Origin: Rossellomorea aquimaris
GTDB taxonomy: Bacteria; Bacillota; Bacilli; Bacillales; Bacillaceae_B
Direction of reading: 5' to 3'
Length of the DNA stretch: 64,000 nucleotides
Assembly (NCBI RefSeq): GCF_000935355.1
Contig: NZ_JXZC01000008.1
Coordinates: 1 to 64,000 of the forward strand
A program made the position numbers and the translations under genes. Below are positions 37,038-51,326 of the stretch, one piece after another; positions within the stretch are counted from its first letter, which is position 1, and the number at the start of each line of letters is the position of its first letter. The notes beneath the pieces are model-generated. The model made no database searches. It saw nothing but the letters and a program-made list of their open reading frames with translations, and was not told where the DNA came from.

Positions 37038-37265
37038 TCACCCAAACGGCGTATCCGACAGTTTAATAGATTCCGTCGGACAATCTTCATACGCCTCTTC
37101 CACATCTTCCATGAACTCTTCCGGGATTGGCGTTGTCCCTTTGTTATCATCCAATAGGACGAATGCCAGTCCTTCTTCGTCGTAGTCGTATACGTCAGGG
37201 GAGGATACTCCGCATGATCCGCAGGCAATACAGGTTTCCTGGTCTATGATCGTGTATTTACCCAT
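37038..37265 (-). CDS. [4Fe-4S] ferredoxin
   Basis: This 75-aa bacterial ferredoxin has the cluster motif CIACGSCG at the N-terminus and one further Cys in EDCPTESI, so four ligands for a single [4Fe-4S] cluster (C11, C14, C17 and about C59). It is an acidic electron carrier. ATG 37265 has AAGGAG 7 nt upstream. It follows the ferredoxin-NADP reductase gene by 12 bases, so the two probably form a reductase/carrier pair. The pair may feed electrons to the diiron oxidase encoded further along. Confidence 0.9.
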
Positions 37266-37277
37266 TTTCAATCTCCT

Positions 37278-38300
37278 TTACGCTTTGATGGTTTCTTTCT
37301 TGTCCGTTTGCCCCATCACGCTTGTACTATGTAATGGCTGCACGCGTGCACTTGGATCGACATATTGCTTCGCATGGCTTACTGCTACTGGTGCCTCTCC
37401 GAACCCGGTGGCGATCAGTTTGATCTTCCCTTGATAGGTGGCGATATCGCCGACGGCAAAGATCCCTTTAATATTCGTTTCCATTTTATAATCAACGACA
37501 ATTGAGTTCTTCTCGATTTGAAGCTCCCAGTCTTTTATGGGACCGAGGGAAGAAATGAATCCGTAATTGACCAGGACATCATCCACATCAACGATTTCAG
37601 TCCGCTCCTCTTTCGCGTGGTGCAGGACGACGTGACGAATCGTGGAGCCCTCTGTATTCAATTCAGCTACGTTGAAGGGGGTCATGATCCGGACATTCGA
37701 ATTCATCAGCTGCTGGACACTGTGTTCATGGGCCCTGAACTTATCCCGTCTATGAACGAGTGTCACCTCGCTTGCAACCGGCTCGAGCATGTTCGCCCAA
37801 TCGACTGCAGAGTCCCCGCCTCCGCATACCATTACTTTTCGGTCCTTAAAGCGGCTTAAGTCGTTCACGAAGTAATGAAGATTTTCATATTCCTCGTTCA
37901 GCTTTTCGATTCCTAACGGCCGGGGTTTGAATGCGCCGGCGCCCGCTGTGACGATGATGGTCTTGGTCTGGTGGACTTCCCCATCATTCGTCGTTAATAA
38001 GAAAGACCCATCAGGAAGCCTTTCCACTTTTTCCACGGTCTGCCCCAGGCTTACAGATGGATTGAATTGATAAGCCTGTTCCTTTAAGCCGTCAACTAAA
38101 TCCTGCGCAAGGACTTTAGGGAACCCCGCTACATCATAAATATATTTTTCCGGGTACAGAGCCGACAGCTGGCCACCTAATTGAGGCATACTTTCAATGA
38201 TCTTCACGCTCATCTGCCGCATACCTGCATAAAAGGCCGTAAATAACCCCGTCGGTCCTCCCCCGATGATTGTGACATCAAAAACTGGACTTTCTTCCAT
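37278..38300 (-). CDS. Ferredoxin-NADP reductase, YumC type
   Basis: This 340-aa flavoprotein resembles B. subtilis YumC, a thioredoxin-reductase-fold FNR that lacks the CxxC. The FAD site is [16 protein letters not shown], the NADP site is [11 protein letters not shown], and [11 protein letters not shown] is near the C-terminus. It moves electrons from NADPH to ferredoxin. It lies between the RidA-like gene and the [4Fe-4S] ferredoxin gene on the minus strand. B. subtilis has a housekeeping copy; whether this one is the housekeeping gene or a cluster-specific paralog cannot be told here. Confidence 0.92.
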
Positions 38301-38334
38301 ACACTCGAACCCCTTTTCTTCAACGTTGTTTGAC

Positions 38335-38814
38335 TTATAACTTCTTCAACAAAAGAAGCAAGTCCGTCTCTACCGCTGCATTACCTGGCAGGGAACTGAC
38401 TCCCACTGCACATCTGGCATGCTTCCCATTCTCACCGAACAATTCAACCAGCAGATCGGACGAACCGTTGATCACCTTCGGAACATCTGGAAAACCTGCT
38501 TCACAACTTACATATCCCGTGACTTTCACGACACGTTCGATAAGGCTGAAGCATCCTAATACATCCTTCACGATCGCGAGCTGATTAAGTGTGGTCAACC
38601 GCGCTGCCTCGTATCCTTCCTCTATCGATACATCCACTCCAACCCGTCCTTTGTAGGGGAGATCACCATTCCACTTACAGGTCACCCCGCTGACGAATAA
38701 GAATGGATCGGCCCGGACAGAACCCAGATAATGCCCGGATGGTTTGGGCTTTTCCGGCAGGATCAGCCCCATCTCTTCAAGCCTGTCTTCAACCTTTAGC
38801 AATTGTTTCTCCAC
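38335..38814 (-). CDS. RidA-family protein (YjgF/Endoribonuclease-like)
   Basis: This 159-aa protein has the RidA fold signature: [21 protein letters not shown] near the N-terminus and [15 protein letters not shown] with the usual C-terminal strand. RidA proteins hydrolyse reactive enamines and imines to ketones plus ammonia, or act in specific catabolic pathways. GTG 38814 is used with GGAAGGAAG upstream. It is 34 bases upstream of the FNR gene. In this cluster it could handle an imine product. Confidence 0.85.
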
Positions 38815-38861
38815 ATCGATCTTCCTTCCTGGCGATTGCCATTAAATCAAGAAGCAGCAGA

Positions 38862-39044
38862 TTATGATGTTTGCAATAGCGTTTCTCTTCTATTTTTGAA
38901 TTTACTTGGTTGATGGGAATAAAACACATTGAGGTTTGCCTGTTTATTGCAAAAAGAACATTTCACACCCTCCGGAGCCTTGCGGATATGAGGGACATCC
39001 AATATCTCAATTGCCTTCGTCACATGTTTTTTACACGTCCACAT
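38862..39044 (-). CDS. Small zinc-finger-like protein
   Basis: This 60-aa basic protein has C4xxxH7 near the start (WTCKKHVTK) and CSFCNKQANL in the middle, so a single zinc-binding site is likely. AGAGGTG lies 6 nt before ATG 39044, a good ribosome site. It sits between the [2Fe-2S] ferredoxin and RidA genes in the same direction. I do not know a function; similar small proteins are common in Bacillus. Confidence 0.65.
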   Translation of the reverse strand: MWTCKKHVTKAIEILDVPHIRKAPEGVKCSFCNKQANLNVFYSHQPSKFKNRRETLLQTS

Positions 39045-39077
39045 TTGCTACACCTCTTTCTTTTAATGTGTTTGTTC

Positions 39078-39425
39078 TTATTTATTTACTACTTGTTTTT
39101 GGATTTTATCGGGCTTTCTTTTCTTCACTACCTTAGTGGTTTCTTCATCCCAGGAAATCGTGACATCCCCATCCGTGACAAATGTTTGGCATCCTAAGCG
39201 ATACCCTTTTTCAAGCCATTCTTCGCCGAGCTTTCTCCGTTCCTGGACCTTCACGTTGTCCAGGTTCTCAGCCCCCTCCTCGATCTTGCAAAGGCAGCTG
39301 CCGCAAATCCCCCCTCCACATTTGTTTGGAAGATCGCCATCATATCGTAAAGACATTCGTAATATATTCGAGTTTTCAGGTACATCCAGAACTTTTCCAC
39401 TAGTAGAATAATTGATTTTAGGCAT
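39078..39425 (-). CDS. [2Fe-2S] ferredoxin (cluster copy 1)
   Basis: This 115-aa plant/adrenodoxin-like ferredoxin has CGGGICGSC (C-x4-C-x2-C) and a fourth ligand in RLGCQT. It is preceded by a sigma-A promoter whose -10 box overlaps an operator palindrome (39452-39466), so expression should respond to the local GntR regulator. ATG 39425 has GGGAGG 8 nt upstream. The C-terminal 30 residues are lysine-rich. Likely role: electron carrier for an oxygenase. Confidence 0.88.
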   Translation of the reverse strand: MPKINYSTSGKVLDVPENSNILRMSLRYDGDLPNKCGGGICGSCLCKIEEGAENLDNVKVQERRKLGEEWLEKGYRLGCQTFVTDGDVTISWDEETTKVVKKRKPDKIQKQVVNK

Positions 39426-39451
39426 CGAGTATTCCTCCCTTGATCCTTCTT

Positions 39452-39487
39452 GGTATACAATATACCACAAACGAAATATTCTGACAA
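39452..39487 (-). promoter_or_regulatory. Ferredoxin promoter with overlapping operator
   Basis: On the minus strand TTGTCA (39482-39487), a 17-bp spacer and TATATT (39459-39464) form a sigma-A promoter. GGTATACAATATACC (39452-39466) is a perfect GGTAT-N5-ATACC palindrome covering the -10. Repression by the FCD-type GntR protein is the likely control. Confidence 0.8.
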
Positions 39488-39525
39488 TATATTTTTAGTC
39501 ATTTCTTAACTTTCTGAATTTTAAT

Positions 39526-39573
39526 TTGAATAACGAATGCTCTACTGCTATACTTTTTGGTATACAAAATTCC
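39526..39573 (+). promoter_or_regulatory. Promoter and operator of the aspartate-dehydrogenase-like gene
   Basis: TTGAAT (39526-39531), a 17-bp spacer and TATACT (39549-39554) make a sigma-A promoter. The operator GGTATACAAAATTCC (39559-39573) starts 4 bases after the -10, over the transcription start. It has one mismatch to GGTAT-N5-ATACC. Confidence 0.8.
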
Positions 39574-39599: not shown

Positions 39600-40406
39600 A
39601 TGTTAAAAGTAGGATTAATAGGTTACGGCGCGATCGGGAAAGATGTTGTCTCATATATAAAAGAAGATAAGGTAGAGGGGGCAGAGGTACACGCGATTCT
39701 AGTAAGGAACTCTGACCAATATGATGAATTAAAGACTGAGAGTTTCATGGTGATGGACAGCGAAGAAACCTTCTTCTCTTCCGGACTGGACGTGATCATC
39801 GAATGTGCGGGGCATGATGCCGTCTATCAGTATGCGGTGAAGTCTTTGTCATCGGGCAGTCACTTTATAACGGTATCCGTAGGAGCGTTCTCTGATGTGG
39901 AGCTATATGAGGACGTCATAGAAGCAGCGAGGAAATATGGCCGTAAATTGATTCTTCCTTCCGCTGCCATAGGTGGCCTGGACCGGATCGCCGCTTCCTC
40001 CATCCATGAGCTGGATGAGGTGAAGCTCATTACCCGGAAGCCCCCTGCCGCATGGAGGGGAACGGTCGCTGAGGAAAAAGTAGATTTAGATACCATCAGT
40101 GAAGAGTTTACCATCTATGAAGGCACTGCCCGTGAATCTGCTAAACTCTTTCCGCAAAGCACGAATGTTTCAGCTGCCCTCAGCATTGCCGGGCTGGGGT
40201 TTGATCAAACGAAAGTACAGGTCCTGGTAGACCCGGGTGTGAATCATAATACGCATCAGATCGTAGCAAAAGGATATTTCGGAGAGGTGGAAATGACCAT
40301 CCAGAATACCCCGTCGGCAGATAACCCTAAATCCGGTTACATTGTCGCCATGAGTATTTGCAAAGCATTGAATAATCTTACCTCCCCTGTTGTGATTGGG
40401 ATTTGA
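39600..40406 (+). CDS. Aspartate-dehydrogenase-like (NadX/DUF108) oxidoreductase
   Basis: This 268-aa NAD(P)-dependent enzyme has the Rossmann motif GLIGYGAIGKDV at the N-terminus, ECAGHDAV, LPSAAIGGLD, then the catalytic region TRKPPAAWRGT and NVSAALSIAG, as in L-aspartate dehydrogenase. That enzyme interconverts aspartate and iminosuccinate/oxaloacetate plus ammonia. No NAD biosynthesis genes are nearby, and the gene is under the cluster operator. A catabolic amino-acid or imine substrate is therefore more likely than NAD synthesis. ATG 39600 has CGGAGG upstream. A shared terminator follows. Confidence 0.85.
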   Translation: MLKVGLIGYGAIGKDVVSYIKEDKVEGAEVHAILVRNSDQYDELKTESFMVMDSEETFFSSGLDVIIECAGHDAVYQYAVKSLSSGSHFITVSVGAFSDVELYEDVIEAARKYGRKLILPSAAIGGLDRIAASSIHELDEVKLITRKPPAAWRGTVAEEKVDLDTISEEFTIYEGTARESAKLFPQSTNVSAALSIAGLGFDQTKVQVLVDPGVNHNTHQIVAKGYFGEVEMTIQNTPSADNPKSGYIVAMSICKALNNLTSPVVIGI

Positions 40407-40417: not shown

Positions 40418-40457
40418 AAAAAGACTGTGTCTCATCATCCAGACACAGTCCCTTTTT
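40418..40457. terminator. Bidirectional terminator between convergent genes
   Basis: AAAAAGACTGTGTCT pairs with AGACACAGTC-CCTTTTT around an 8-nt loop. It can serve both the NadX-like gene (plus) and the GntR gene (minus). Confidence 0.8.
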
Positions 40458-41133
40458 ATTTTTTCTTCACTTTTTCTTTTTGCTTTTCAATGAAATGGAT
40501 ATAGGCTTTTTTGGAATTTTCGATGTGGATCTTCGTTAAGAACTCGGCCATATCCGCTTCTTTATCCCTTACCGCTTTCATGATCTGGATATGTTCCTTT
40601 AATGATTCCTTCCTGCGCCCAGGGGTTTCATATCCCATACTGGCAGACATCTGAATATAATCGGTCAACCCGGAAAGGATCTGGAAAAGCTTCGGGCTTT
40701 TGGCGGCTTTATAGAGGAGGAGATTCATCTCGATATGTTCCGTATCGATTCCTTCTCCCTCCCCTTTTTCCAGGGCTTCCAGCTTTTCGATCTTCTCATT
40801 GAATTCTTGTTGTATGTCATCATCCATTTTCTGTGCGGCAAGCTTTGCAGCCAATACCTCGAGTGAAGACAGGATCGTAAACACTTCGATGACTTCCTCT
40901 TCAGAAATATTGGAAACAATGACGCCCTTTCTAGGGACGGTCTTGACGAAGCCTTGAGATTCAAGCCGGAACAGTGCTTCACGAATCGGGGTCCGGCTGA
41001 TATTCAGTTTACTGGCCACTTCCCTTTCGATCAGGCGGTCTCCAGGCTTGTATTCCCCGCCCAGAATCAGATCTTTTAAATAAATATATGCACGCTCACG
41101 GATTGAAAGTAATTCCTCTTCTTCCCACTTCAT
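40456..41133 (-). CDS. GntR-family regulator, FCD subfamily
   Basis: This 225-aa protein has a winged helix-turn-helix (about 10-75; LKDLILGGEYKPGDRL, then LNISRTPIREALFRLESQGFV) and an all-helical FCD ligand-binding domain (about 85-215). FCD-type GntR regulators often bind TGGTATACCA-like palindromes and respond to carboxylates or amino acids. The cluster is full of GGTATAC sites, so this is the obvious candidate regulator. I see no such site before its own gene, so it may not be autoregulated. Confidence 0.9.
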   Translation of the reverse strand: MKWEEEELLSIRERAYIYLKDLILGGEYKPGDRLIEREVASKLNISRTPIREALFRLESQGFVKTVPRKGVIVSNISEEEVIEVFTILSSLEVLAAKLAAQKMDDDIQQEFNEKIEKLEALEKGEGEGIDTEHIEMNLLLYKAAKSPKLFQILSGLTDYIQMSASMGYETPGRRKESLKEHIQIMKAVRDKEADMAEFLTKIHIENSKKAYIHFIEKQKEKVKKK

Positions 41134-41274: not shown

Positions 41275-41808
41275 TTAATTCGATAAAAAGATCCCTCCAT
41301 AAAATAGTGCACATACGATCACGAGTGCCGGATGGATTTTCAGCTTTTTCATGACTAGAAACCCTGCAGCAGTCAGGATCACAAGATGCAATACTCCGCT
41401 TTTTTCAAAGGCAGACAGGAAGAATTGATACGCCAATACCCCGAGTAAAATGGCGATGACGGGCTGTACGGACAGTGTCATCAGCTTGACCTGTGGGGAA
41501 TCCTTGAAAAGGTTCACGAATTTGAACAGGATGATGACGGCGATGGCTGATGGAAGAATGGTTGCTGCAAGGGCAATCACCATCCCCAACACGCCTCCCA
41601 TTTCATAGCCGATGAACCCTGCCATCTTCGTCGCGATCGGCCCGGGCAGGACGTTTGCAATCGCGAACAGATCCCCGAACTCGCCCAGTGTCATCCATTC
41701 ATATCGGTTGACCACTTCATTTTGAATGAGCGGGATCGTTGAAGGCCCGCCGCCATACCCAAGGAGATTCGATATGAAAAATGCCCAGAAAATATCCCAA
41801 TAAATCAT
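41275..41808 (-). CDS. Chromate transporter-like half protein (second half)
   Basis: This 177-aa CHR-family membrane protein has the signature LGYGGGPSTIPLIQNEVV near the N-terminus, NVLPGPIATKMAGFIGY, and about five or six helices. Its start overlaps the stop of the preceding CHR gene by four bases (ATGA). Such paired short CHR proteins (B. subtilis YwrA/YwrB type) form a heteromeric transporter. Chromate export is the family label; in this catabolic context an organic or sulfate-like anion is possible. Confidence 0.88.
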   Translation of the reverse strand: MIYWDIFWAFFISNLLGYGGGPSTIPLIQNEVVNRYEWMTLGEFGDLFAIANVLPGPIATKMAGFIGYEMGGVLGMVIALAATILPSAIAVIILFKFVNLFKDSPQVKLMTLSVQPVIAILLGVLAYQFFLSAFEKSGVLHLVILTAAGFLVMKKLKIHPALVIVCALFYGGIFLSN

Positions 41809-42401
41809 ACGCTTTTTTCCTTTCTTGGCTCATACATGTCCTCGGACACATCTTTCATCCGGTTCTTATATCCAGCCACGATGAATGCTCCCAATAGACA
41901 AGCCCCGATCATGATTCCCGGATGCAGATTCAGGAACTGGATCAGTACAAGGGAAGCGCCGCCCAGTCCAAATGCGATCGGCAGTCCGAGACCTTTACGT
42001 GCCTTATCTGCGAACTTGTACGCCATTTCAAGGAGCATGATCCCGATGATCGGCGTCACCCCCTGCACCATCCCCCCTACAATCGGGGACGTCCGGTACT
42101 TGTAAAGGAGCCCGAGCATGAACAGCATCCCGAACAATGAAGGAAGGATATGGGCCAGGATCGCTACTGCCGCTCCCAGGTTACCATTCACTTTGTATCC
42201 GATATACGCAGCCATCTTCGTAGCGATCGGACCCGGCAGCGTGTTGGCAAGTGCCAGGGTCTGGCCGAATTCGTCTTCTGTCATCCATTCGTATTTCTTC
42301 ACTGCTTCATATTCGATCAATGGTATGGTGGAGGGCCCTCCCCCATATCCGGTCACTCCCGTTCTGGCAAAACCAACCGTAAGGTCCAAATAAGATTTCA
42401 T
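41805..42401 (-). CDS. Chromate transporter-like half protein (first half)
   Basis: This 198-aa CHR-family protein is homologous to the one it overlaps. It has TGYGGGPSTIPLIEYEAV, NTLPGPIATKMAAYIGY and about six helices. It is translationally coupled to the second half and lies 49 bases after the GlcG/HbpS-like gene, so it is probably part of the ALDH operon. Confidence 0.88.
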   Translation of the reverse strand: MKSYLDLTVGFARTGVTGYGGGPSTIPLIEYEAVKKYEWMTEDEFGQTLALANTLPGPIATKMAAYIGYKVNGNLGAAVAILAHILPSLFGMLFMLGLLYKYRTSPIVGGMVQGVTPIIGIMLLEMAYKFADKARKGLGLPIAFGLGGASLVLIQFLNLHPGIMIGACLLGAFIVAGYKNRMKDVSEDMYEPRKEKSV

Positions 42402-42450: not shown

Positions 42451-42924
42451 TTACTTCTTAATATCTGCATCTGTTACAACGTCATGATCCTTTAAGTAGG
42501 ACTGCAATGCTTTCAGGGCAGCCGTTCCGACAGCCGTATCCTGTTCACCGTTACCGCCGCTGACCCCGATGCCGCCGATGACTTCATCATCCACTACGAT
42601 CGGAAATCCTCCGACGAATACCGCGAACTTCCCCGGGAGCATCTGCTGGATACCAAATGCTTCATTTCCAGGCAAGACAGGCCCGTTCGGTTCCTTGTTA
42701 AATAAATGAGTGGAACGCTTATGCCCAGCTGCCGTAAACGCTTTGGCAATGGCGATGTCGGGACCGGTGATCCGGGCACCGTTCATACGTTCAAGAGCAA
42801 TCACATGCCCTCCGTCATCTACCACCGCGATGGTTTCAAGCACATTGATTTCTTCTGATTTTCTTTTTGCCTCTTCTATGATCACTTTCGCTTCTTCGAG
42901 TTGGAGTCTTAGTACAGTTTTCAT
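42451..42924 (-). CDS. GlcG/HbpS-like (DUF336) protein
   Basis: This 157-aa protein has the DUF336 motifs VVDDGGHVIALERM, near-invariant GARITGPDIAIAKA, and GGFPIVVDDEVIGGIGVSGG. The family includes haem-binding HbpS, GlcG of glycolate loci and PduO-type domains, and is often found beside catabolic dehydrogenases. Its role here is unknown; cofactor or small-molecule binding is likely. It starts 24 bases after the ALDH stop, so it is cotranscribed. The ribosome site GGGGGTAA is weak. Confidence 0.85.
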   Translation of the reverse strand: MKTVLRLQLEEAKVIIEEAKRKSEEINVLETIAVVDDGGHVIALERMNGARITGPDIAIAKAFTAAGHKRSTHLFNKEPNGPVLPGNEAFGIQQMLPGKFAVFVGGFPIVVDDEVIGGIGVSGGNGEQDTAVGTAALKALQSYLKDHDVVTDADIKK

Positions 42925-42948: not shown

Positions 42949-44412
42949 TTAGTATCCTATATATACAGTCTTGATTTGAGTGAAGAAATCGAGTCCCGCT
43001 CTCCCTGATTCACGGAAGGTGGACGTACTGGATTTCTTAATTCCGCCAAATGGAGCGTTCATCAGATTACCGGTCGTTGTTCGATTCACTTTCACAGTGC
43101 CGGCTTTAATATCCTTCGTGAACTGTTGGGCCGTTTTTAAGTTAGTGGTCACAATCGAAGCGGACAGACCGTATTCCACGTCGTTCGCCACTTTGATCGC
43201 TTCTTCATAATCAGAAACCTCGATCACCGCGATGACAGGACCGAAGATTTCTTCCTTGGCAATCCTCATGGATGGATCGACGTCTGTAAAGATGGCAGGA
43301 CTTACATAATAGCCTTTTCCGTATTCACCTTCCGTTACGTGTTCTCCTCCATACAGTAAGGAGGCACCCTCTTTTTTACCGATTTGAATGTACTTTAATA
43401 CATTCGTTAATTGCTTCTCACTCGCCAACGGACAAACCGTGACCCCTTCTTCAAAGCCGTTACCGATCTTGAGGTTCTTTGTTTTTTCCACGAGAGCACT
43501 AAGGAATTTCTCTTTGACCTCTTTCATGACGATGACACGGCTGGTACCCGTACAGGCCTGGCCGCTCAGATTGTAGCCGCCGTTCACGGTCAATTTGGCG
43601 GCAAGCTCGATATCGGCATCCTCCATCACGATCAACGGATTCTTCCCGCCAAGCTCCATCTGTGTTCTCGTATCGAAGGAAACATTGCGGTGAATGCGTT
43701 CCCCGGCGCCAGTAGAACCTGTAAACGTCACAGCCTTCACCGCCGGATGGTCGACCAGGCTGTCACCGATCTCACGGGAGTTCCCCGTCACAAAATTCAG
43801 CACCCCATCGGGAAGTCCTGCGTGGACCAAAGCTTCCACTAATCTATAAGCAACCAATGGTGTTTCAGAGGATGGCTTGAATACCACCGTATTTCCAGTG
43901 ATCAAAGCAGGAGCAATTTTACGGGCTGGTATCGATAATGGAAAGTTCCATGGAGTGATGACAGTGATGACACCCAGTGGCTCAAGCTTTGATGATACAT
44001 CCATGTTGGGATCATCCTGTGGATAGGTCTCTCCGCTGTGACTTTGACCTTCCACCGCATAATATTTCAGGGTATCGGCAGATCTCAGCACTTCCCCGCG
44101 GGCAGCCCCGATCGGCTTCCCTTCCTCCAGTGTTAATTCCTTTGCAAATTGATCCACATGGTCGATCAAGTATTGAGCTGCCTTGTTAAGGATCGCTGCC
44201 CTCTTGGAAGGCGCCGTTTCAGACCAGGAAGGAAAAGCGGCATCAGCAGATTCAATGGCTCTTTTGACGTCCTCTTGTGTGGATGCCTGGAAGACACCGA
44301 TCACTTCTTCCTTGTTGGCTGGATTATGGCTGACAAACGTTTTTTCACTGGAGGAATCCTCCCATTGACCGTTGATGTAGTTTTTGTATAATTCGGCTTT
44401 TGCTACTAGCAC
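42949..44412 (-). CDS. Aldehyde dehydrogenase, ketoglutarate-semialdehyde-dehydrogenase-like
   Basis: This 487-aa NAD(P)-dependent ALDH has TPWNFPLSIPARKIAPAL, general base E253 (MELGGKNP), nucleophile C287 (SGQACTGTSR) and EEIFGPV. By eye it resembles the YcbD/2,5-dioxovalerate dehydrogenase group more than betaine- or phenylacetaldehyde-type enzymes, so a semialdehyde of a dicarboxylic acid is a reasonable substrate guess. GTG 44412 is preferred because AGGAAAGG lies 9 nt upstream; ATG 44421 directly abuts it. It lies downstream of the diiron oxidase gene, separated by a hairpin. Confidence 0.9.
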   Translation of the reverse strand: MLVAKAELYKNYINGQWEDSSSEKTFVSHNPANKEEVIGVFQASTQEDVKRAIESADAAFPSWSETAPSKRAAILNKAAQYLIDHVDQFAKELTLEEGKPIGAARGEVLRSADTLKYYAVEGQSHSGETYPQDDPNMDVSSKLEPLGVITVITPWNFPLSIPARKIAPALITGNTVVFKPSSETPLVAYRLVEALVHAGLPDGVLNFVTGNSREIGDSLVDHPAVKAVTFTGSTGAGERIHRNVSFDTRTQMELGGKNPLIVMEDADIELAAKLTVNGGYNLSGQACTGTSRVIVMKEVKEKFLSALVEKTKNLKIGNGFEEGVTVCPLASEKQLTNVLKYIQIGKKEGASLLYGGEHVTEGEYGKGYYVSPAIFTDVDPSMRIAKEEIFGPVIAVIEVSDYEEAIKVANDVEYGLSASIVTTNLKTAQQFTKDIKAGTVKVNRTTTGNLMNAPFGGIKKSSTSTFRESGRAGLDFFTQIKTVYIGY

Positions 44413-44456
44413 TCGAAACATCCTTTCCTATTCATTTCTCGGATATGATGAACAAA

Positions 44457-44514: not shown

Positions 44515-45243
44515 TTAAGCCTCTACAAGAGTACCTAAATCTTTTTCAAGATACTCTTTCCATAATCCGTCCATGTACATGCGGCGCATTTTCGCTCCTA
44601 CACGCACAATCTCCAGACATTCCTGCTGAAGCTCCGGTGTATCGGCATGCTCAAGCACGATTTTGTATCCGCGCTCTCCATGGATTTCATCCGATACGAT
44701 GTGCAGGTCGAAGAATTCGATTTCTTCATCTGTGAATCCGTATTTTTCACGAAGGACAGGCGTTTGTTTACGATAAATATCAGGTACCTGAGATTCCAAC
44801 CCTACTACTAATGCTGCCGTAGCCACTACAAAGTTTTCACGTGCCGCCACTGAGTAGCACCAGCTTTGCAGTCCAAGAGTCGTCGCAGCCATATTCTTCG
44901 GATCTCTTACTCTATCACCTGTCGTTCCACATGCTTCAGCAAAACGGATCAACAGGTCGGTATGGCGATCTGCGGCGATTTCTTCTTCGTACATATTTTG
45001 AAGGGTGAAATCTTTCGCGTCTTCGAATTTAGGATGATCCGGCGTATTGTGATAGATATAAGAAAGATAGTTCGCGAATGGCCCAACATAGTGGTAATGG
45101 TTTTCAGCCCATTTCGCAAAGTGCTTTCTCTCGAGCTTTCCTTCTGCCCAAGCAGTTGTAAAAGGAGCCTTTTGACTATGATTTCCCTTGATTGCCTCTT
45201 CCAGCTCTTTACGGAATTCATCTTTAGATAATAGTTTTGTCAT
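44515..45243 (-). CDS. Haem-oxygenase-like diiron oxidase (PqqC/CADD-type fold)
   Basis: This 242-aa all-helical protein resembles TenA/PqqC/CADD proteins. Diiron ligands of the haem-oxygenase-like oxidase superfamily are all present: E87 and H94 (EEEIAADRH), E150 (GLESQVP) and the H-x3-D-x2-H motif H181/D185/H188 (LHIVSDEIH). This argues for O2-dependent oxidation rather than PQQ synthesis; no other PQQ gene is present. Known members decarboxylate fatty acids, cleave lysine derivatives or N-oxygenate amines. ATG 45243 has AGGAGG upstream. The gene has its own promoter and two operator sites, so it is a key regulated step. Ferredoxins in the cluster can supply electrons. Confidence 0.82.
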   Translation of the reverse strand: MTKLLSKDEFRKELEEAIKGNHSQKAPFTTAWAEGKLERKHFAKWAENHYHYVGPFANYLSYIYHNTPDHPKFEDAKDFTLQNMYEEEIAADRHTDLLIRFAEACGTTGDRVRDPKNMAATTLGLQSWCYSVAARENFVVATAALVVGLESQVPDIYRKQTPVLREKYGFTDEEIEFFDLHIVSDEIHGERGYKIVLEHADTPELQQECLEIVRVGAKMRRMYMDGLWKEYLEKDLGTLVEA

Positions 45244-45293: not shown

Positions 45294-45453
45294 GGTATTT
45301 TGTATACCAAATAGCGTTGAAAAAACAACCATATCTTCCTTTTCGACTGAAGTGACACCATCTAAAGAGATACAGTTCGTGAAAACAACTACTTAGCTTG
45401 TTCATTTGGTATACCACTGACTTTATACTACCCTATGGATCTTACTTTGTAAA
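45294..45453 (-). promoter_or_regulatory. Promoter and two operators of the diiron oxidase gene
   Basis: On the minus strand TTTACA (45448-45453), 17 bp and TAGTAT (45425-45430) form a promoter. A compact operator GGTATACC (45410-45417) sits just after the -10. A full GGTAT-N5-ATACC site (45294-45308) lies about 115 bases further downstream, 50 bases before the start codon. The spacing would allow looping or a roadblock. Confidence 0.72.
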
Positions 45454-45497: not shown

Positions 45498-46964
45498 CTA
45501 CATAAACAATATGGCCGCAAGTGTGGCCACCACGAGCCCCGTCATGACGGGAATGAAGTTCTTCCTGGCGAGTTCCAGCACGGAAACTCCGCAAAAACCT
45601 GCCACTGCCACAAGGGATGACCATGCGATCAGTGTCCCACCGCCTGTCCAAACAGATCCCATCTGACCGATCGCGGCCAGCGTACCAGGATCAATCCCAG
45701 CCGAACCTGACATGGCACCTGATAATGCCCCCACTAAAGGAAGGCCTGAGAAACCTGAACCATCCAATCCAGTGATAATACCAACTAAAAGGATACCAAA
45801 GGCACTAAAGAAAGCGTTTTCAGGAATAGATGCTTGTGCAGACTGAACGAGATCAAATAGAAAGGCTGGCTTGGCCGCCTCTTCCCCAAGGGATAGAATC
45901 GAACCGGTAAAATCCGAGCTCCCCAGGAAAAAGAATCCGGCAATCGGGATAACCGGCCCCATGGCACGAAACGCGAACACAAAACCGTCTGTAATGTGAT
46001 CCCCGATTTTATCAAGGGCATGGATCCGGCCGAAAGCGACGGACGCCAAAATCAGCAGTACCGCTGCGACTCCACCGATAAAGGCAGCACCGTCCCCACC
46101 TGCGAATCTCCCCGACTCAGCATCACTGAACTTGGTAGAAAACATAAATATCATGACGGCGAGCATGGACAATGGAACGAGAACTGCAAACACTTTTCCC
46201 CATATCTCTTTTCTGCCTCTGTATACCTCAAGCTCAGACGCCGCGGATACTTCAGCTTCCACAACACTTTTGTCAGCAGTCATGGCATTCAATAGGTTGA
46301 CCGCATTCTCTGCTTCTTCGCTATTCGGCTTTGCGATCGACTTATACATCATCGCATAAGCGACCCCGACAGCTGTCACCCCGGTAATGATTGATAAGAT
46401 CATCGCTTTATCGGCAACTTGTACCGTTTCCATCCCTCCAGAAGTAGCCGTCAGCATCGGCGCGATCTGCATGATATAGTCAGACGATAACGCCATCCCC
46501 TGCCCAGCAATCGCCACGATCATCGCGGCCCCCATCGCAGGCAGCCCGGCACGCATGGCAGCAGGAACAAGTAGGGCACAAATGAGCGGAACAGCCGGTG
46601 TCGGCCAGAAGAATAAGGATATGACATACGTCACAACCATTAATACGAAAAAAGCGACATGACCGTTGACCATGACCTTCTGTATGGGCACGATCATCCG
46701 TTGATCGGCTCCGATATCTTTCAATGAGTTTAATAGAGCGACCATCAGGGTAATAATTAAAAAGATACTGAATAATTCTCTGGCTGCAACCAGATTGGCG
46801 TTAAAGACCGCCATGAAACCGCCGACGAGGGATCCTTTATACAACCAGGCAACCAAAAAGGTCCCGACGATCGTCGGCAGTACAACCCCTTTGCGAAACA
46901 ACATCGTAACAATGACAAGTGCAGTAACCAATGCATACAACCAATGAGCAGCAGATAAATCCAA
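45498..46964 (-). CDS. Uncharacterised multi-pass permease
   Basis: This protein is about 488 aa with 11-12 transmembrane helices. The motifs FFWPTPAVPLICALLVPAA, ITGLDGSGFSGLPLVGALSG and VWTGGGTLIAW suggest an ion-transporter-superfamily organisation with two re-entrant repeats (GntP/CitM-like). I do not recognise a named family. The start is uncertain: TTG 46964 is chosen because GGGAAGGGTGA lies just upstream at a workable distance. GTG 46973 would abut that site. It follows the creatininase-family gene by 32 bases. It likely imports the substrate of the cluster. Confidence 0.72.
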   Translation of the reverse strand: MDLSAAHWLYALVTALVIVTMLFRKGVVLPTIVGTFLVAWLYKGSLVGGFMAVFNANLVAARELFSIFLIITLMVALLNSLKDIGADQRMIVPIQKVMVNGHVAFFVLMVVTYVISLFFWPTPAVPLICALLVPAAMRAGLPAMGAAMIVAIAGQGMALSSDYIMQIAPMLTATSGGMETVQVADKAMILSIITGVTAVGVAYAMMYKSIAKPNSEEAENAVNLLNAMTADKSVVEAEVSAASELEVYRGRKEIWGKVFAVLVPLSMLAVMIFMFSTKFSDAESGRFAGGDGAAFIGGVAAVLLILASVAFGRIHALDKIGDHITDGFVFAFRAMGPVIPIAGFFFLGSSDFTGSILSLGEEAAKPAFLFDLVQSAQASIPENAFFSAFGILLVGIITGLDGSGFSGLPLVGALSGAMSGSAGIDPGTLAAIGQMGSVWTGGGTLIAWSSLVAVAGFCGVSVLELARKNFIPVMTGLVVATLAAILFM

Positions 46965-46996
46965 AGCATTCACCCTTCCCACTTTTTTGTAGCGAT

Positions 46997-47767
46997 TTAA
47001 TTCAGCATTTCGACTTCGATTTTCAATAATTCTCTTAATGCTTGTGCGATATTCTCTGTTGCTTCTGTCACAATTTGTTCCCCTATCTCTCTCGTTGCCT
47101 TTGTTGCGTCCCCGATACATCCATTTTTCGTCATTTCTTCATAATGATAAAATCCTTGAATCGCTTTTCCCGGTCTTAATTGTTTATATCTCCCCCCTTC
47201 ACAGAAATCTCCCGGCGTCAATTTCTCCGGTCTAATCAAGTAAGGTGCTAAGTAAAGTGCTTCTGATACTTCACGTTCACAGCTGTGGCCGAAAATGGGA
47301 GAGTCAATGAAATGCCCGATGGACTCTTTGGCTGATGCCGTGGTCTTGGCATAATAGATCTCTACCTTTTCCTCCTCTGACAACACCGTGCTTGCCACAC
47401 TTAAAGTCGATTGATTTCCCCCATGCGCATTTAGGAATAGAAATTTCTTGATCCCATGATGCTTTAAAGATCGAACCATATCCCTTAAGATCGCAATCAA
47501 TGTATCCGGCTTCAAGGAGATGGTCCCCGGGAAGTTCATGTGATGGGGAGACACACCCATATTGACCGTCGGCGTAACGATCAGGTGCGGATGCATCCGC
47601 TCGGCGATTTTTTTCGCCATCTCGGTTGCAAGGACCGCATCACAGCTTTCGATCATGTGAGGACCGTGCTGTTCATGGGCCCCGATCGGTATGACCGCCA
47701 TCTTAACGGTTTTTAATGCATCCTCTACCTCTTCCCAGGTCATATTTGTCAGTACGTACGAATTCAT
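46997..47767 (-). CDS. Creatininase-family amidohydrolase
   Basis: This 256-aa protein has the metal-site motifs of the family: PIGAHEQHGPHMIESCD near residue 30, HHMNFPGTISL, NAHGGN and SCEREVSEAL. The family is a two-metal enzyme that opens lactam or formamide bonds (creatininase, FAPy deformylase, mycofactocin MftE peptidase). No mycofactocin genes are nearby. ATG 47767 has AAGGGGTG 6 nt upstream; a GTG nine bases earlier overlaps it. A perfect operator lies 24 bases upstream. It probably hydrolyses a cyclic amide or amide intermediate. Confidence 0.85.
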   Translation of the reverse strand: MNSYVLTNMTWEEVEDALKTVKMAVIPIGAHEQHGPHMIESCDAVLATEMAKKIAERMHPHLIVTPTVNMGVSPHHMNFPGTISLKPDTLIAILRDMVRSLKHHGIKKFLFLNAHGGNQSTLSVASTVLSEEEKVEIYYAKTTASAKESIGHFIDSPIFGHSCEREVSEALYLAPYLIRPEKLTPGDFCEGGRYKQLRPGKAIQGFYHYEEMTKNGCIGDATKATREIGEQIVTEATENIAQALRELLKIEVEMLN

Positions 47768-47791: not shown

Positions 47792-47806
47792 GGTATTTTG
47801 TATACC
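47792..47806. promoter_or_regulatory. Operator between ferredoxin 2 and creatininase-family genes
   Basis: GGTATTTTGTATACC, flanked by C and G to give CGGTAT...ATACCG, is a perfect inverted repeat in the 59-bp gap. It implies separate control of the creatininase-permease pair even though the ferredoxin gene lies just upstream. Confidence 0.75.
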
Positions 47807-47826: not shown

Positions 47827-48156
47827 TTAACCCTTTGCCTCTGCTGCATCCCTTCTCTTCTTGACGTCCACACCTTCCTGCGTCAGTTCGATATCCGCTT
47901 TAATATTCAGCTGACACGTAAGGCGATAGTTTTCATTCACGAGTTCCCCAAGCATCTTATCCTCTTTCCAATTGGGTGGATCTAGGTTTTCACCACCGCT
48001 CAACACTTTACACGTACACTTTGTACACTTCCCCATCCCGCATCCATATTTCAGTTTCGGGAACTGCTTAATTCCTGCCAGTACAACCAAATTAGCGCCA
48101 TCCTTCACATCCTGTTCAACGATTCCACCTTCGACATACAGCTTGACATTTGGCAT
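47827..48156 (-). CDS. [2Fe-2S] ferredoxin (cluster copy 2)
   Basis: This 109-aa protein has CGMGKCTKC (C-x4-C-x2-C) and a last ligand in RLTCQL, so it is a [2Fe-2S] carrier. It is distinct in sequence from the copy at 39078. ATG 48156 has AAGGAG 8 nt upstream. The start region itself contains TTTGGTATGCCAAA, a near-operator palindrome, so autorepression near the ribosome site is conceivable. It probably serves the diiron oxidase or another oxidase of the cluster. Confidence 0.87.
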   Translation of the reverse strand: MPNVKLYVEGGIVEQDVKDGANLVVLAGIKQFPKLKYGCGMGKCTKCTCKVLSGGENLDPPNWKEDKMLGELVNENYRLTCQLNIKADIELTQEGVDVKKRRDAAEAKG

Positions 48157-48438: not shown

Positions 48439-48774
48439 ATGGAAAAGTATATTGTACTGACCAACAAGGATACCTTTCAGACGGTACTAGAAAATGACGG
48501 ATTCCAGCCTGTAGAAACGTATCATTTTTATTTCTTCGACAAGTTGAAATCCACCTACACCATTGCCAGGGTCCTGGATGATGACGCGAAGATTCAATTG
48601 TATGAGAAGTATGAGGGAAAAGAGTATATCAATCATATCCGGGTGAAGTTCTTTGAATCCTTTGAGACGATCGAAGGTGCTCGCGAAGAGTTATATGAAA
48701 TTGTGAAGGCGAATGGAAACAGCGAAGACTCGAAGCATTCGAAGCTTGTTAAGTCTGATGAATTAGCTGTTTAG
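48439..48774 (+). CDS. Orphan 111-aa protein under the cluster operator
   Basis: This soluble protein (MEKYIVLTNKDTFQTVLEND at the start) is rich in Tyr, Phe, Glu and Lys, ends in a polar tail, and has no signal or membrane segment. I do not recognise the family. The size and alternating beta/alpha pattern resemble small subunits of oxygenase systems, but I have no motif to support that. GAAGGAG precedes ATG 48439. Its promoter carries the same operator as the enzymes, so it is probably a functional part of the pathway. Confidence 0.7.
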   Translation: MEKYIVLTNKDTFQTVLENDGFQPVETYHFYFFDKLKSTYTIARVLDDDAKIQLYEKYEGKEYINHIRVKFFESFETIEGAREELYEIVKANGNSEDSKHSKLVKSDELAV

Positions 48775-49402
48775 TAAAACGGTTTTTACCTCAATCTATT
48801 TTATACAGGCTTACTCTATCCTTTGGAATCTGGAGGGTTAGGTAAGTCTGCTTTTTTGTGGGATTAATAGTTGATTCTCTCTACGGATAAAGTGGTAGTG
48901 TGTGAAACATAGACCGTTCTTTTTGCAAAGTTTGTGGTTATCTTAAGAAAGAAAGCAGTAGTTGCTTTCCGCTCCAGGATGCTCGCTTTCCGCGGGGGCG
49001 TGAGTTGAGCCTCCTCGGGCTTTGCCCTGTGGGGTCTCAACTTTCCCGCTATTCCCGCAGGAGTCGAGCATCCTTCCGCTACAATCAACTTTCTAAGCAT
49101 GTTTCTTTTAATACATATAAATAAAATCAAAAGCTATTAGCAAACAAACTCTTTGGAGGTTAGTAGAATAAACATCCTATTGAAAAAACTATCCTTTAAT
49201 TAGTTCGTTTTTTTACACCTTTAGCTCTGTCACTAAAAAACGTTTAAAGTTGGGGATGGGAACTGCGTAGACTCCGGCGGATTTTGGTCGTACCCCCCTT
49301 CCATCAACTCTATTTCTCTACTTTTTATAAAAAACCCAACGCAAAACACCTCCGATTCTAGTACTTGAAAACATACTATAATCGAAGGTGTTTTATTTAG
49401 CC
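48775..49402. repeat. Gap with a Bacillaceae-type interspersed repeat and a terminator
   Basis: No gene is seen. The stretch 48957-49085 (GCTTTCCGCTCCAGGATGCT at its start, CCGCAGGAGTCGAGCATCC near its end) is a GC-rich imperfect palindrome. I recognise it as a repeat type common in many Bacillaceae genomes. A long terminator (AAAACACCTCCGATT/AATCGAAGGTGTTTT, 49343-49394) ends the permease gene on the minus strand. Confidence 0.65.
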
Positions 49403-50788
49403 TCATACGAGGATTTGCAATATCATGAGGTAGATCACGGTCAATGCCAGGAACGAAATCGTAAATGTGAAGTTCCAATTCGATACTTTGAATGAGCTTG
49501 TCTTTACTATGGTCGACATTAGACCGATGGTTGCGTTATAGGGTCCCATAAGAAACGCGGATACTGCCCCTGCGAGCATGGAAACCGTCAGGATATAAGG
49601 TGAAACATCCAGGCTGTGGGGGTCCAGGGTTCCTGCCAGTAAGGCGAGTGCCACCGCTGGATGAAGTCCGATAAACGCCAGGGTCAACGGAATCAGAGGG
49701 ATTAATAGGACAAAGATTTCGATCCCGATTGTATCCTTGAAAGCGGTGATCCATTCATTCACCAGATGGTCCGTATGGGAGAATTCAATCGCCGATATGA
49801 AGAAACCTGCAGACAGAAAGATAAAAAACTGATCTTTCATTTTCAGTAAATGGTGCTGATAGTGATCCACCAGACCCTTTTTAAAACCACCTGCTTCTCC
49901 CAGTAATAGGCACCAGATGAAAGTAAATGGAATGACGAGCAACGATACGACGATTAAGAACGATAGGGACAACCAATGCTCCAGGAATGAAATCACGATA
50001 TTGAAGGCAAGGATCGCCAGCAGAATATGTGACAGCTTTCCTGCCCCAGGCCTGCCCTCCATCCCCTCGATAGCTGCAGCTGTTTCATTAGCAGCTGGGC
50101 TTGTACGATAGGAAGGACGATTTCTCCTTTTTCTGAATCCACCTGTATACCAATCAAGCAGCAGCCCCATCACACTAAGTGGAAGGACATAAGGGAGCAA
50201 CCCGCCCCACTTCACCCCTGTCATATCAATCACAATCCCGACAATCGGGGTGACGGGGGCCCACATCAACGGCATGGAGAACCCGTGAGTGATGGCCCTG
50301 CTCATGAACCTCTCCCTATCTTCGAGCGAGAAAGCATCCGCGGCCGGCCTGACAGAGAAATAGGTCATAGGCAGCGTGGCCAGATTCATGAAGATACTAA
50401 AGAAATAAGAAATCCCGGACGTCAGACTGTACAAACTTGTTGAAGACTTTACCCTTCTGGATATAAAGCCTTGAATATTTTCAGAATAGTTTCCGAGCTT
50501 GATAGGAAGTGCCAACAAAGGGACTAAAGCAAACAACGTCAGAAGATTGAGCATCGGGCCGAATGAAAACAGAATATCTTTTAAACTGGCGTCACCCTTC
50601 AACAACATAATGAATCCCAATACAAGAAACGTTCCCCCTATCACCTTTACAAACTTGTTTACTCTGAATAAAGTAATGATGACAATCAGGAAGCAAATCA
50701 CAGAGATGATGGGAGCAATATCGATCCCACTGAAAAGTTCGTTGATCAAATAAAATAGGATAGCTGCAACGGATAAAAGTTTGATCAT
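49403..50788 (-). CDS. Uncharacterised permease at the right end of the cluster
   Basis: This 461-aa protein has 11-12 transmembrane helices. LATLPMTYFSVRPAADAF and the two halves separated by a charged loop (about 215-235) fit an ion-transporter-superfamily carrier, but I do not recognise a named family. It is not obviously homologous to the permease at 45498. ATG 50788 has a weak GGTGAT site. A GGTATAC half-operator lies 70 bases upstream (50858-50872), so it probably belongs to the regulon. Confidence 0.72.
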   Translation of the reverse strand: MIKLLSVAAILFYLINELFSGIDIAPIISVICFLIVIITLFRVNKFVKVIGGTFLVLGFIMLLKGDASLKDILFSFGPMLNLLTLFALVPLLALPIKLGNYSENIQGFISRRVKSSTSLYSLTSGISYFFSIFMNLATLPMTYFSVRPAADAFSLEDRERFMSRAITHGFSMPLMWAPVTPIVGIVIDMTGVKWGGLLPYVLPLSVMGLLLDWYTGGFRKRRNRPSYRTSPAANETAAAIEGMEGRPGAGKLSHILLAILAFNIVISFLEHWLSLSFLIVVSLLVIPFTFIWCLLLGEAGGFKKGLVDHYQHHLLKMKDQFFIFLSAGFFISAIEFSHTDHLVNEWITAFKDTIGIEIFVLLIPLIPLTLAFIGLHPAVALALLAGTLDPHSLDVSPYILTVSMLAGAVSAFLMGPYNATIGLMSTIVKTSSFKVSNWNFTFTISFLALTVIYLMILQILV

Positions 50789-50857
50789 CTAATCACCAAT
50801 TCTTTTTTTCTGATTATTCTTTATATTAAACCTCTTGAGAATGAAAATCAATTATAT

Positions 50858-51010
50858 GGTATACATTATTTCAGGAAAGAGGCCGTTTTTTGATTTTGAT
50901 TGTTGTTGCCAACTCGGATACGCGAACCGATCCCTTGCTGATAATTGCGGTTTTATAGGGATTTGAAGCGTTTTTCAAAAAAAGGGCCACTAATTATGGT
51001 ATACCATAAT
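50858..51010. promoter_or_regulatory. Operators upstream of the right-end permease and peptide genes
   Basis: GGTATACATTATTTC (50858-50872) keeps only one arm. ATTATGGTATACCATAAT (50993-51010) is a perfect 18-bp palindrome with the compact core. No gene lies between them. They could serve the minus-strand permease, the plus-strand peptide gene, or both. Confidence 0.65.
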
Positions 51011-51059
51011 TACTTTTATAACTGTTTTTTAGGTTAATAACATTAAAAATAAGGTATTT

Positions 51060-51103
51060 GGTATACAATAATTGTTGACTTACACATATCAGCCTCTTAT
51101 AAT
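51060..51103 (+). promoter_or_regulatory. Near-consensus promoter of the 28-aa peptide gene
   Basis: TTGACT (51075-51080), a 17-bp spacer and TATAAT (51098-51103) give one of the strongest sigma-A promoters in the window. A GGTATACAA half-site (51060-51068) lies 6 bases upstream of the -35. Confidence 0.8.
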
Positions 51104-51145
51104 AAAGACATAACAAATAATATAAAATCTCCGGGAGGGGTCCAT

Positions 51146-51232
51146 ATGTTCCAACTATTATTTGGATCAAAACACGCTTTAGAAAAAGCAAACCGTAAAT
51201 TTGCCAGACTAAAACGTACATTAAAGTTTTAA
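51146..51232 (+). CDS. 28-aa cationic peptide gene
   Basis: The frame codes for a 28-residue peptide (MFQLLFGSKHALEKA, then NRKFARLKRTLKF) with a net positive charge and an amphipathic helical pattern. It has a good ribosome site (GGGAGGGG, 5 nt upstream of ATG), a near-consensus promoter and a strong terminator 60 bases after the stop. That makes it a complete small transcription unit. There is no signal peptide. It could be a membrane-surface peptide, a regulator of the neighbouring permease, or a host-defence or toxin-like peptide. The function is unknown. Confidence 0.65.
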   Translation: MFQLLFGSKHALEKANRKFARLKRTLKF

Positions 51233-51291
51233 TGATATAACATTCTGTCCTATATAATTCTCATTTGGGGGGGGGCAGTTCAGTCTCCATC

Positions 51292-51326
51292 AAAAAAGGT
51301 GGTCCAATCATAGGACCACCTTTTTT
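51292..51326 (+). terminator. Strong terminator of the peptide gene
   Basis: AAAAAAGGTGGTCC and GGACCACCTTTTTT pair perfectly around a short loop, followed by T residues. Confidence 0.85.

What the first reader, a model, noticed from the sequence alone, without database searches (positions are those of the whole stretch)
37038..51326. Unnamed catabolic regulon: diiron oxidase, creatininase-type hydrolase, NadX-like dehydrogenase, ALDH, RidA, three ferredoxins and FNR under one operator
Seen: at least six transcription units in 14 kb share a GGTATAC palindrome and encode a coherent enzyme set. It comprises an O2-activating haem-oxygenase-like diiron enzyme with complete ligands and electron carriers (two [2Fe-2S], one [4Fe-4S], an FNR). 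It also has an amide/lactam hydrolase, an imine/amino-acid dehydrogenase, an enamine deaminase, an aldehyde dehydrogenase, a DUF336 protein and two orphan permeases. Known: each family handles N-containing or aldehyde intermediates. Inference: uptake, oxidative cleavage, ring or amide opening, release of ammonia and aldehyde oxidation of an unidentified nitrogenous substrate. I know of no described pathway with this combination.
Basis: partly seen in the sequence, partly recalled or inferred. Interest (0 to 1): 0.88.

Follow-up and report, generated by a model that had tools for sequence, protein, structure and literature searches.

The report
Conserved diiron-oxygenase catabolic gene regulon
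A block of about sixteen genes, probably switched together by one regulator and found in scattered soil, marine and spore-forming bacteria, appears to degrade an unidentified nitrogen-containing acid with an unusual oxygen-using iron enzyme that comes with its own electron carriers and a previously unnamed partner protein.

Summary
A 15-bp inverted repeat, GGTAT-N5-ATACC, stands before fdxA, HDO and creatininase (exact; 3 in 64 kb, 0.1 expected) and, with 1-2 mismatches, before NadX, a small gene and perm2. In relatives it is kept before the same genes (58-93%, one mismatch allowed), hardly before internal genes. In 70 Bacillota loci fetched through the haem-oxygenase-fold enzyme (HDO), creatininase, ALDH and DUF336 occur in 70, NadX in 51. 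In 399 Burkholderiales genomes that protein occurs in 9 of 10 with the HDO, 0 of 389 without.

The HDO keeps all six metal ligands but lacks the sacrificed Tyr and Lys of pABA synthases. Best reading: a GntR-controlled catabolic regulon for an anionic nitrogenous carboxylate, opened by a multicomponent HDO oxygenase. One regulon: well supported. Catabolism, electron route, partner role: inferred. Substrate: unknown. A 2026 review says HDOs studied so far need no protein effector, so such a system would be new.

The parts
37038..37271 (-). [4Fe-4S] single-cluster ferredoxin, facultative member
   Evidence: PF13370 57.7 bits; 9 of 70 Bacillota loci
37278..38300 (-). FAD/NAD(P)-dependent ferredoxin reductase-like (TrxR/YumC type), facultative
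   Evidence: PF07992; 10 of 70 Bacillota loci
38335..38814 (-). RidA/YjgF-family protein (PF14588 subfamily), facultative
   Evidence: 31 of 70 Bacillota loci
39078..39425 (-). fdxA, plant-type [2Fe-2S] ferredoxin, core
   Evidence: PF00111
39452..39466 (.). operator GGTATACAATATACC before fdxA
   Evidence: exact inverted repeat; conserved in 61 of 68 relatives
39559..39573 (.). operator GGTATACAAAATTCC before nadX
   Evidence: one mismatch; 44 of 51 relatives
39600..40406 (+). NadX-like aspartate dehydrogenase
   Evidence: NCBIfam NF009828 245.9 bits, cut-off 177; 51 of 70
40456..41133 (-). GntR-FCD regulator, last gene of the HDO unit
   Evidence: PF00392, PF07729; 69 of 70
41275..41808 (-). 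ChrB-type half chromate-transporter family
   Evidence: PF02417 141 bits; 64 of 70
41805..42401 (-). ChrA-type half chromate-transporter family
   Evidence: PF02417 135 bits; 64 of 70
42451..42924 (-). DUF336/HbpS-like protein, core
   Evidence: PF03928 123 bits; 90 of 91 loci
42949..44421 (-). aldehyde dehydrogenase, 2,5-dioxovalerate/betaine-aldehyde type (start codon uncertain)
   Evidence: PF00171 571 bits; NF042993 587 bits, below its cut-off 770; 85 of 91 loci, one of them a 28% relative
44515..45243 (-). haem-oxygenase-fold dimetal enzyme (HDO), core
   Evidence: PF14518; six ligands invariant
45294..45308 (.). operator GGTATTTTGTATACC before HDO
   Evidence: exact; 65 of 70 relatives with at most 1 mismatch, only 1 of 70 exact
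45498..46973 (-). perm1, anion permease of the ion-transporter-superfamily fold
   Evidence: AF2 pLDDT 77; Foldseek to MleN, NaDC, TRAP, ArsB, E 4e-7 to 1e-4, TM about 0.5
46997..47767 (-). creatininase-family amidohydrolase
   Evidence: PF02633 217 bits; 70 of 70 Bacillota loci, 0 of 21 others
47792..47806 (.). operator before creatininase-perm1
   Evidence: exact; 61 of 70
47827..48156 (-). fdxB, second plant-type [2Fe-2S] ferredoxin, core
   Evidence: PF00111
48386..48400 (.). operator before the small gene
   Evidence: one mismatch; 55 of 68
48439..48774 (+). 111-aa protein without a Pfam, NCBIfam or PADLOC model; proposed partner/effector of the HDO
   Evidence: 87 of 91 loci; 9/10 against 0/389 genomes; AF2 pLDDT 86, no PDB match E<=0.001
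49403..50788 (-). perm2, membrane permease of unknown family
   Evidence: no family hit; 67 of 70 Bacillota, 0 of 21 others
50858..51067 (.). operator-like sites upstream of perm2 (50858-50872 two mismatches; 51053-51067 one)
   Evidence: 38 of 66 relatives

Best explanation
This is a single catabolic regulon, probably repressed by its own GntR-FCD protein. perm1 (and perm2) import an anionic, nitrogen-containing carboxylate; the creatininase-family hydrolase opens an amide or lactam bond. The key step is a multicomponent oxygenase: the HDO is the hydroxylase, the two [2Fe-2S] ferredoxins carry electrons from a reductase (the FNR here, a phthalate-type 2Fe-2S flavoprotein in Burkholderiales), and the small protein acts as a subunit or effector; DUF336 acts on or protects the unstable product. 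The oxidation yields an aldehyde that the ALDH turns into an acid, and NadX (with RidA here) deaminates or reduces the amino/imino acid; ChrAB exports an anionic by-product. Shown here: operator, gene content, conservation, metal ligands by alignment, co-inheritance of the small protein. Inferred: every reaction, the electron route, the role of the small protein and DUF336, GntR as the binding protein, and the substrate class.
For: Operator in six units and conserved upstream of the same genes in relatives (58-93% against at most 1.5% in shuffles), near absent before internal genes: ALDH 1/70, DUF336 0/70, ChrA 2/64. Gene content nearly constant across 70 Bacillota loci although perm1, perm2 and NadX change place and perm2 also strand. 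HDO + ferredoxins + DUF336 + small protein kept in most other loci at about 70% HDO identity. Small protein only with HDO in 399 genomes, Fisher 1.6e-17. Functions apparently replaced by unrelated families: NadX by the ornithine-cyclodeaminase family (8 of 21), ChrAB by TauE/SafE (6 of 21), FNR by a phthalate-type reductase (10 of 21). perm1 anion-carrier fold. Patchy presence: 9/61 relatives, 10/399 Burkholderiales, 1/385 Alphaproteobacteria, 3/136 in the SAR116 order, query genomes included.
Against: No substrate, product or electron transfer is shown. The SAR116-type loci L091 and L092, and L096, L123 and L126, lack both ALDH and perm1 in the stretch held. FNR, 4Fe ferredoxin and RidA are facultative; a clustered reductase is absent from most Bacillota loci; creatininase and perm2 are confined to Bacillota. 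Hydrolase replacement elsewhere rests on single loci and may be chance neighbours. The small protein is missing in 4 of 91 loci (one a cut contig), one HDO genome (G246) lacks it, and the copy in G062 has an internal TGA. Its model shows no fold link to anything solved, effectors included. HDOs studied so far are described as biosynthetic (PMC13108848, PMC13232832 passages), and one, DtpC, as protective. GntR binding is untested.
Confidence: 0.6

Rival explanations
1. The cluster makes a compound or protects against one (a biosynthetic, detoxifying or stress HDO pathway) instead of feeding on it.
For: HDOs studied so far are described as making small molecules (PMC13108848 part read; PMC13232832 passages); Acinetobacter DtpC, a predicted HDO, protects against oxidative stress (abstract and passages). 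HDO clusters are patchy.
Against: None of the 16 genes is a peptide or ATP-grasp ligase by the family scans; instead two permeases, hydrolase, ALDH, amino-acid dehydrogenase and a shared operator on each unit.
Confidence: 0.15
2. A special case of the catabolic reading: the HDO hydroxylates the carbon next to a sulfonate (or similar oxyanion) of an amino acid such as homocysteate, giving an aldehyde (aspartate semialdehyde) and sulfite; ChrAB or TauE exports the sulfite, the ALDH makes aspartate and NadX releases ammonia.
For: Exporter families named for oxyanions are frequent partners: ChrAB in 64 of 70 Bacillota loci, TauE/SafE in 6 of 21 others. NadX passes the aspartate-dehydrogenase subfamily model.
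Against: No sulfite-handling enzyme is among the typed genes (not searched for specifically); TauE and Chr proteins may carry other anions (recalled); 15 of 21 non-Bacillota loci gave no exporter hit; the hydrolase is unexplained.
Confidence: 0.12
3. Two or more pathways share a regulator: the HDO module (HDO, ferredoxins, small protein, DUF336) is one, and creatininase, NadX, RidA and perm2 serve another.
For: Creatininase and perm2 stay in Bacillota while the HDO module crosses phyla.
Against: Creatininase accompanies HDO in 70 of 70 Bacillota loci, mostly with the same operator (61 of 70); perm1 and ALDH cross phyla too.
Confidence: 0.13
4. The HDO is a p-aminobenzoate synthase or PqqC-like cofactor enzyme.
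For: Nearest solved structures are pABA synthases (E 2e-22) and PqqC.
Against: Sacrificed Tyr27 is Thr/Ser and donor Lys152 is Gln in 30 of 30 (residues from PMC11965152); NCBIfam CADD and PqqC cut-offs missed widely; patchy distribution.
Confidence: 0.02

Closest known systems
CADD / NePabS, self-sacrificing pABA synthases (HDO superfamily)
   Same: Closest solved relatives by sequence (E 2e-22 and 9e-15); same 3-His/3-carboxylate ligand set
   Different: Lacks the sacrificed Tyr and donor Lys (Thr/Ser and Gln); sits in a regulon with ferredoxins, ALDH and permeases
MboA/MboB of mangotoxin biosynthesis
   Same: HDO with a dedicated redox partner of the NAD(P)H-flavin-Fe2S2 type (PMC13185094, passages)
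   Different: Biosynthetic, peptide substrate, one fused reductase; in the passages seen no separate ferredoxins, small protein or DUF336
Bacterial multicomponent diiron monooxygenases (ferritin-like fold)
   Same: Parts list (recalled; accessory proteins also in PMC13108848): diiron hydroxylase, ferredoxin(s), reductase, small accessory protein
   Different: Haem-oxygenase family instead of ferritin fold; accessory role of the small protein unproved
Oxygenase + amide hydrolase + ALDH + Rid clusters, e.g. the Arthrobacter plasmid cluster L127
   Same: Similar enzyme logic and a perm1-like permease (40% identity)
   Different: L127 has an LLM flavin monooxygenase, adenylate-forming enzyme and amidase; no HDO annotated

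Membership tests
HDO superfamily | Haem_oxygenas_2 / TenA-PqqC sequence family | tested here: met
   PF14518 116.4 bits, cut-off 28.9
HDO superfamily | 3-His/3-carboxylate dimetal ligands | tested here: met
   E87, H94, E150, H181, D185, H188 in 30 of 30 rows, by alignment to CADD; CADD ligand numbers recalled
HDO superfamily | assembled Fe/Fe or Fe/Mn cofactor reacting with O2 | not testable with these tools
   needs protein
HDO superfamily | haem-oxygenase fold | not tested
   both folding jobs went to the small protein and perm1
self-sacrificing pABA synthase | sacrificed Tyr (CADD Tyr27) | tested here: not met
   T 16, S 14 of 30 rows
self-sacrificing pABA synthase | amine-donor Lys (CADD Lys152) | tested here: not met
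   Q in 30 of 30 rows; NCBIfam CADD model 96.6 bits, cut-off 200
PqqC | equivalog score TIGR02111 | tested here: not met
   42.8 bits, cut-off 240
multicomponent diiron monooxygenase | ferritin-like hydroxylase | tested here: not met
   HDO family instead
multicomponent diiron monooxygenase | dedicated ferredoxin and reductase | tested here: inconclusive
   two separate [2Fe-2S] ferredoxins in 80 of 91 loci by a strict count; a clustered reductase only in 10 of 70 (FNR type) and 10 of 21 (phthalate type)
multicomponent diiron monooxygenase | small redox-inactive effector protein | tested here: inconclusive
   small protein co-inherited with HDO; no fold match to any solved protein at E<=0.001
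creatininase (creatinine amidohydrolase) | equivalog score TIGR04448 | tested here: not met
   109.8 bits, cut-off 235; family Pfam PF02633 met
aspartate dehydrogenase NadX | NCBIfam subfamily NF009828 | tested here: met
   245.9 bits, cut-off 177; equivalogs NF009830 (236.6, cut-off 267) and TIGR03855 (203.1, cut-off 206.55) missed
2-oxoglutarate-semialdehyde dehydrogenase | equivalog score NF042993 | tested here: not met
   586.8 bits, cut-off 770
GntR-FCD regulon | regulator binds the conserved repeat | not testable with these tools
   repeat conserved; binding needs an assay

The most novel reading that the evidence does not exclude
The cluster encodes the first multicomponent oxygenase built on the haem-oxygenase fold: an HDO hydroxylase fed by two dedicated ferredoxins and gated by an effector from a new protein family, used to open a widespread but undescribed degradation route for a nitrogen-containing carboxylate in Bacillota and Proteobacteria, including marine SAR116.
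Probability: 0.45. Interest if true: 0.85.

Novelty: new variant of a known kind. Interest (0 to 1): 0.72.

Why it matters
HDOs studied so far are described as enzymes of small-molecule biosynthesis (PMC13108848 part read; PMC13232832 passage), and the review says those studied to date need no protein effector. A catabolic HDO with its own ferredoxins and a co-inherited small protein would extend the superfamily to nutrient degradation, offer a second, unrelated solution to the multicomponent diiron monooxygenase, and define a pathway that annotation splits into unconnected 'iron-containing redox enzyme', 'heme-binding protein' and 'hypothetical protein' genes. The conserved operator and small core make it directly testable.

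Tried and rejected
Rejected: pABA synthase and PqqC (residues and scores). Found weak: reading the substrate from NCBIfam equivalogs of ALDH, creatininase and the cyclodeaminase-family protein; all fall below cut-offs. The PHROG hit of the small protein ('protease', E 4e-4) is absent in a second family member and was not used; PADLOC, Pfam and NCBIfam gave nothing. Foldseek of the small protein: no PDB match at E<=0.001. Counting GGTATAC alone overstates the case. Looking for an empty site with the two flanking genes gave no clear junction: the left neighbour is in 24 of 36 genus genomes and the right-hand signal-peptidase-like gene in 25 of 36; in G016 the left neighbour stands about 8 kb from the HDO as here, in G003 about 42 kb away. 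Literature: seven answered searches listed no such catabolic cluster; open-access papers only, judged from listings; among those not opened is the Cupriavidus metallidurans CH34 genome paper (PMC2864759), whose strain carries the cluster. I read part 1 of 6 of PMC13108848 plus passages and passages of PMC13185094, PMC11965152 and PMC13232832. Two further SAR116-order stretches were fetched but not analysed.

Counts of loci: one search reported 121 relatives and kept the best 80; I used all 80 (L018-L087 counted as Bacillota, one record, L029, being titled Chryseobacterium; L088-L097 as others), plus 3 of 4 fetched plasmid loci (the near-duplicate L100 dropped; 2 of 6 plasmid hits not fetched) and 8 of 10 Burkholderiales hits (G062 already held as L094; G423 near a contig edge) = 91. 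Since loci were fetched through the HDO, its own presence is by construction. In the operator count matches under 35% identity or with under 150 bp upstream were dropped. One search found two separate small ferredoxin genes in 80 of 91; the other 11 include short contigs and over-long ORFs.
Full report
What is there. The regulator is GntR-FCD. The best named relatives are Rossellomorea; the record itself is unnamed.

Operator. The shared element is the inverted repeat GGTAT-N5-ATACC. The window has 3 exact copies (0.1 expected from a first-order Markov model) and 6 with one mismatch (1.5 expected; 3 of them outside the cluster); all three exact copies and two of the one-mismatch copies lie 31-58 bp before start codons of fdxA, HDO, creatininase, NadX and the small gene; perm2 has weaker or more distant sites. 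Across the whole genome there are 7 exact copies, no more than the reversed control (9), but 3 of the 7 lie in 8.4 kb of this cluster. In 70 Bacillota loci the site (at most one mismatch, 200 bp upstream) is kept before fdxA in 61/68, NadX 44/51, HDO 65/70, creatininase 61/70, small 55/68 and perm2 38/66, but before ALDH in 1/70, DUF336 0/70, ChrA 2/64, RidA 0/31, FNR 1/10, GntR 6/69 and perm1 7/69; shuffled upstream regions give at most 1.5%. Exact copies are rarer (HDO 1/70, perm2 2/66). This pattern fits operons headed by operators: HDO-ALDH-DUF336-ChrA-ChrB-GntR, creatininase-perm1, fdxA-RidA-FNR-4Fe ferredoxin, and single genes NadX, small and perm2. fdxB heads no clear unit: the nearest good site is 237 bp away here, and 10/69 relatives have one.

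Conservation. Of 121 relatives found, the best 80 were kept. In the 70 Bacillota loci, all fetched through the HDO: creatininase, ALDH, DUF336 and fdxA 70, fdxB, perm1 and GntR 69, small 68, perm2 67, ChrA and ChrB 64, NadX 51, RidA 31, FNR 10, 4Fe ferredoxin 9 (some Chr, fdxA, GntR and perm2 hits are below 55% identity and may be paralogues), and a ProC-like NAD(P) protein 32-33. perm1, perm2 and NadX change place and perm2 also strand, while content hardly changes. Distribution is patchy: 9 of 61 relatives including the host, i.e. 4 of 35 other genus members and 4 of 25 from other families of the order; 10 of 399 in the order of Lacisediminimonas, here called Burkholderiales; 1 of 385 in the class of Bradyrhizobium, namely the query genome itself; 3 of 136 in the SAR116 order.

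Core across phyla. In 91 loci HDO is accompanied by DUF336 in 90, the small protein in 87, ALDH in 85 (one of them a 28% relative) and perm1 in 82, and by two separate small ferredoxins in 80 by a strict count. The SAR116-type loci L091 and L092 keep HDO, both ferredoxins, DUF336 and the small protein but no ALDH or perm1. In 399 Burkholderiales genomes the small-protein profile (E<=1e-4) hits 9, all among the 10 with the HDO (E<=1e-60), and none of the 389 without (Fisher 1.6e-17); five of the nine contributed rows to the profile, and one of the nine (G062) has an internal TGA. The exception, G246 (locus L126), also lacks ALDH and perm1 but has a NadX relative.

Replaceable parts. Where Bacillota use NadX, 8 of 21 other loci have an ornithine-cyclodeaminase-family protein; where they use ChrAB, 6 of 21 have TauE/SafE; 10 of 21 have a phthalate-type reductase. 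Single loci carry other hydrolases: an alpha/beta hydrolase in Caballeronia, a gamma-glutamyltransferase-like protein in L094 and an amidase in L122. This suggests conserved functions filled by different families; for the hydrolase the evidence is thin.

The HDO. It belongs to PF14518; nearest solved relatives are pABA synthases. Mapped on CADD, ligands E87, H94, E150, H181, D185 and H188 are invariant in 30 rows, while the sacrificed Tyr27 is Thr/Ser and the donor Lys152 is Gln (roles of Tyr27 and Lys152 from PMC11965152; ligand numbers of CADD recalled). So it looks metal-competent but is not a pABA synthase or PqqC. [quoted passage not shown] Acinetobacter DtpC, a predicted HDO, shows that roles outside biosynthesis exist (PMC13232832).

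Transport and substrate hints. perm1 has no Pfam or NCBIfam hit, but its model (pLDDT 77) matches MleN (an integrative model), NaDC, TRAP and ArsB-type carriers at TM about 0.5 and 11-15% identity, i.e. carriers of organic or inorganic anions. Relatives occur in 73 of 398 genomes of the phylum; in 5 of 16 fetched loci (L162, L163, L168, L169, L171) they sit beside a recurring gene set, typed in L162 as an FCD regulator, DUF6917, a PLP-enzyme-like protein, a FAD protein, a B12-binding protein and a lysine-5,6-aminomutase-type reactivase; L162 also has a RidA (part of that listing was cut). On plasmids perm1 is found in the six HDO records and one Arthrobacter record beside an LLM monooxygenase, amidase, ALDH and Rid protein. 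Together these point to an anionic amino or amide compound, but do not name it.

Mechanism and confidence. I favour a multicomponent HDO oxygenase opening a catabolic pathway (0.6 for the whole statement; about 0.9 that the units form one regulon; 0.45 for the effector-gated HDO system). The homocysteate-like sulfonate model is one concrete, testable version (0.12).

Noticed in passing
33913-59744 (e.g. 34497, 36731, 37018, 51363, 52922): A family of short intergenic palindromes around GGGACAGG/CCTGTCCC (12 half-site hits); copies stand just outside both ends of the regulon (36731/37018 and 51363). The strict symmetric pattern is found only 3 times in the genome at up to 2 mismatches.
   Followed up: partly
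L162, L163, L168, L169, L171: perm1 relatives in other members of the phylum lie in a recurring cluster which in L162 holds a B12-binding protein, a KamB-like reactivase, a PLP-enzyme-like protein, DUF6917 and a FAD enzyme: perhaps an undescribed aminomutase fermentation.
   Followed up: partly
L127 (Arthrobacter sulfonylureivorans plasmid p1): perm1-like permease beside LLM monooxygenase, flavin reductase, adenylate-forming enzyme, amidase, ALDH and a TetR-Rid fusion: perhaps a flavin-based analogue of the pathway.
   Followed up: partly
L056:3136-3831 and relatives: A 231-aa ProC-like NAD(P)-binding protein in 32-33 of 70 Bacillota loci, not seen in the window's cluster.
   Followed up: partly
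10344-10403 and 32624-32631: Three GGTATACC palindromes outside the regulon, two of them 52 bp apart; target genes not examined.
   Followed up: no
L126: A variant HDO locus with DUF336, ferredoxins and a NadX relative but no ALDH, perm1 or small protein.
   Followed up: no
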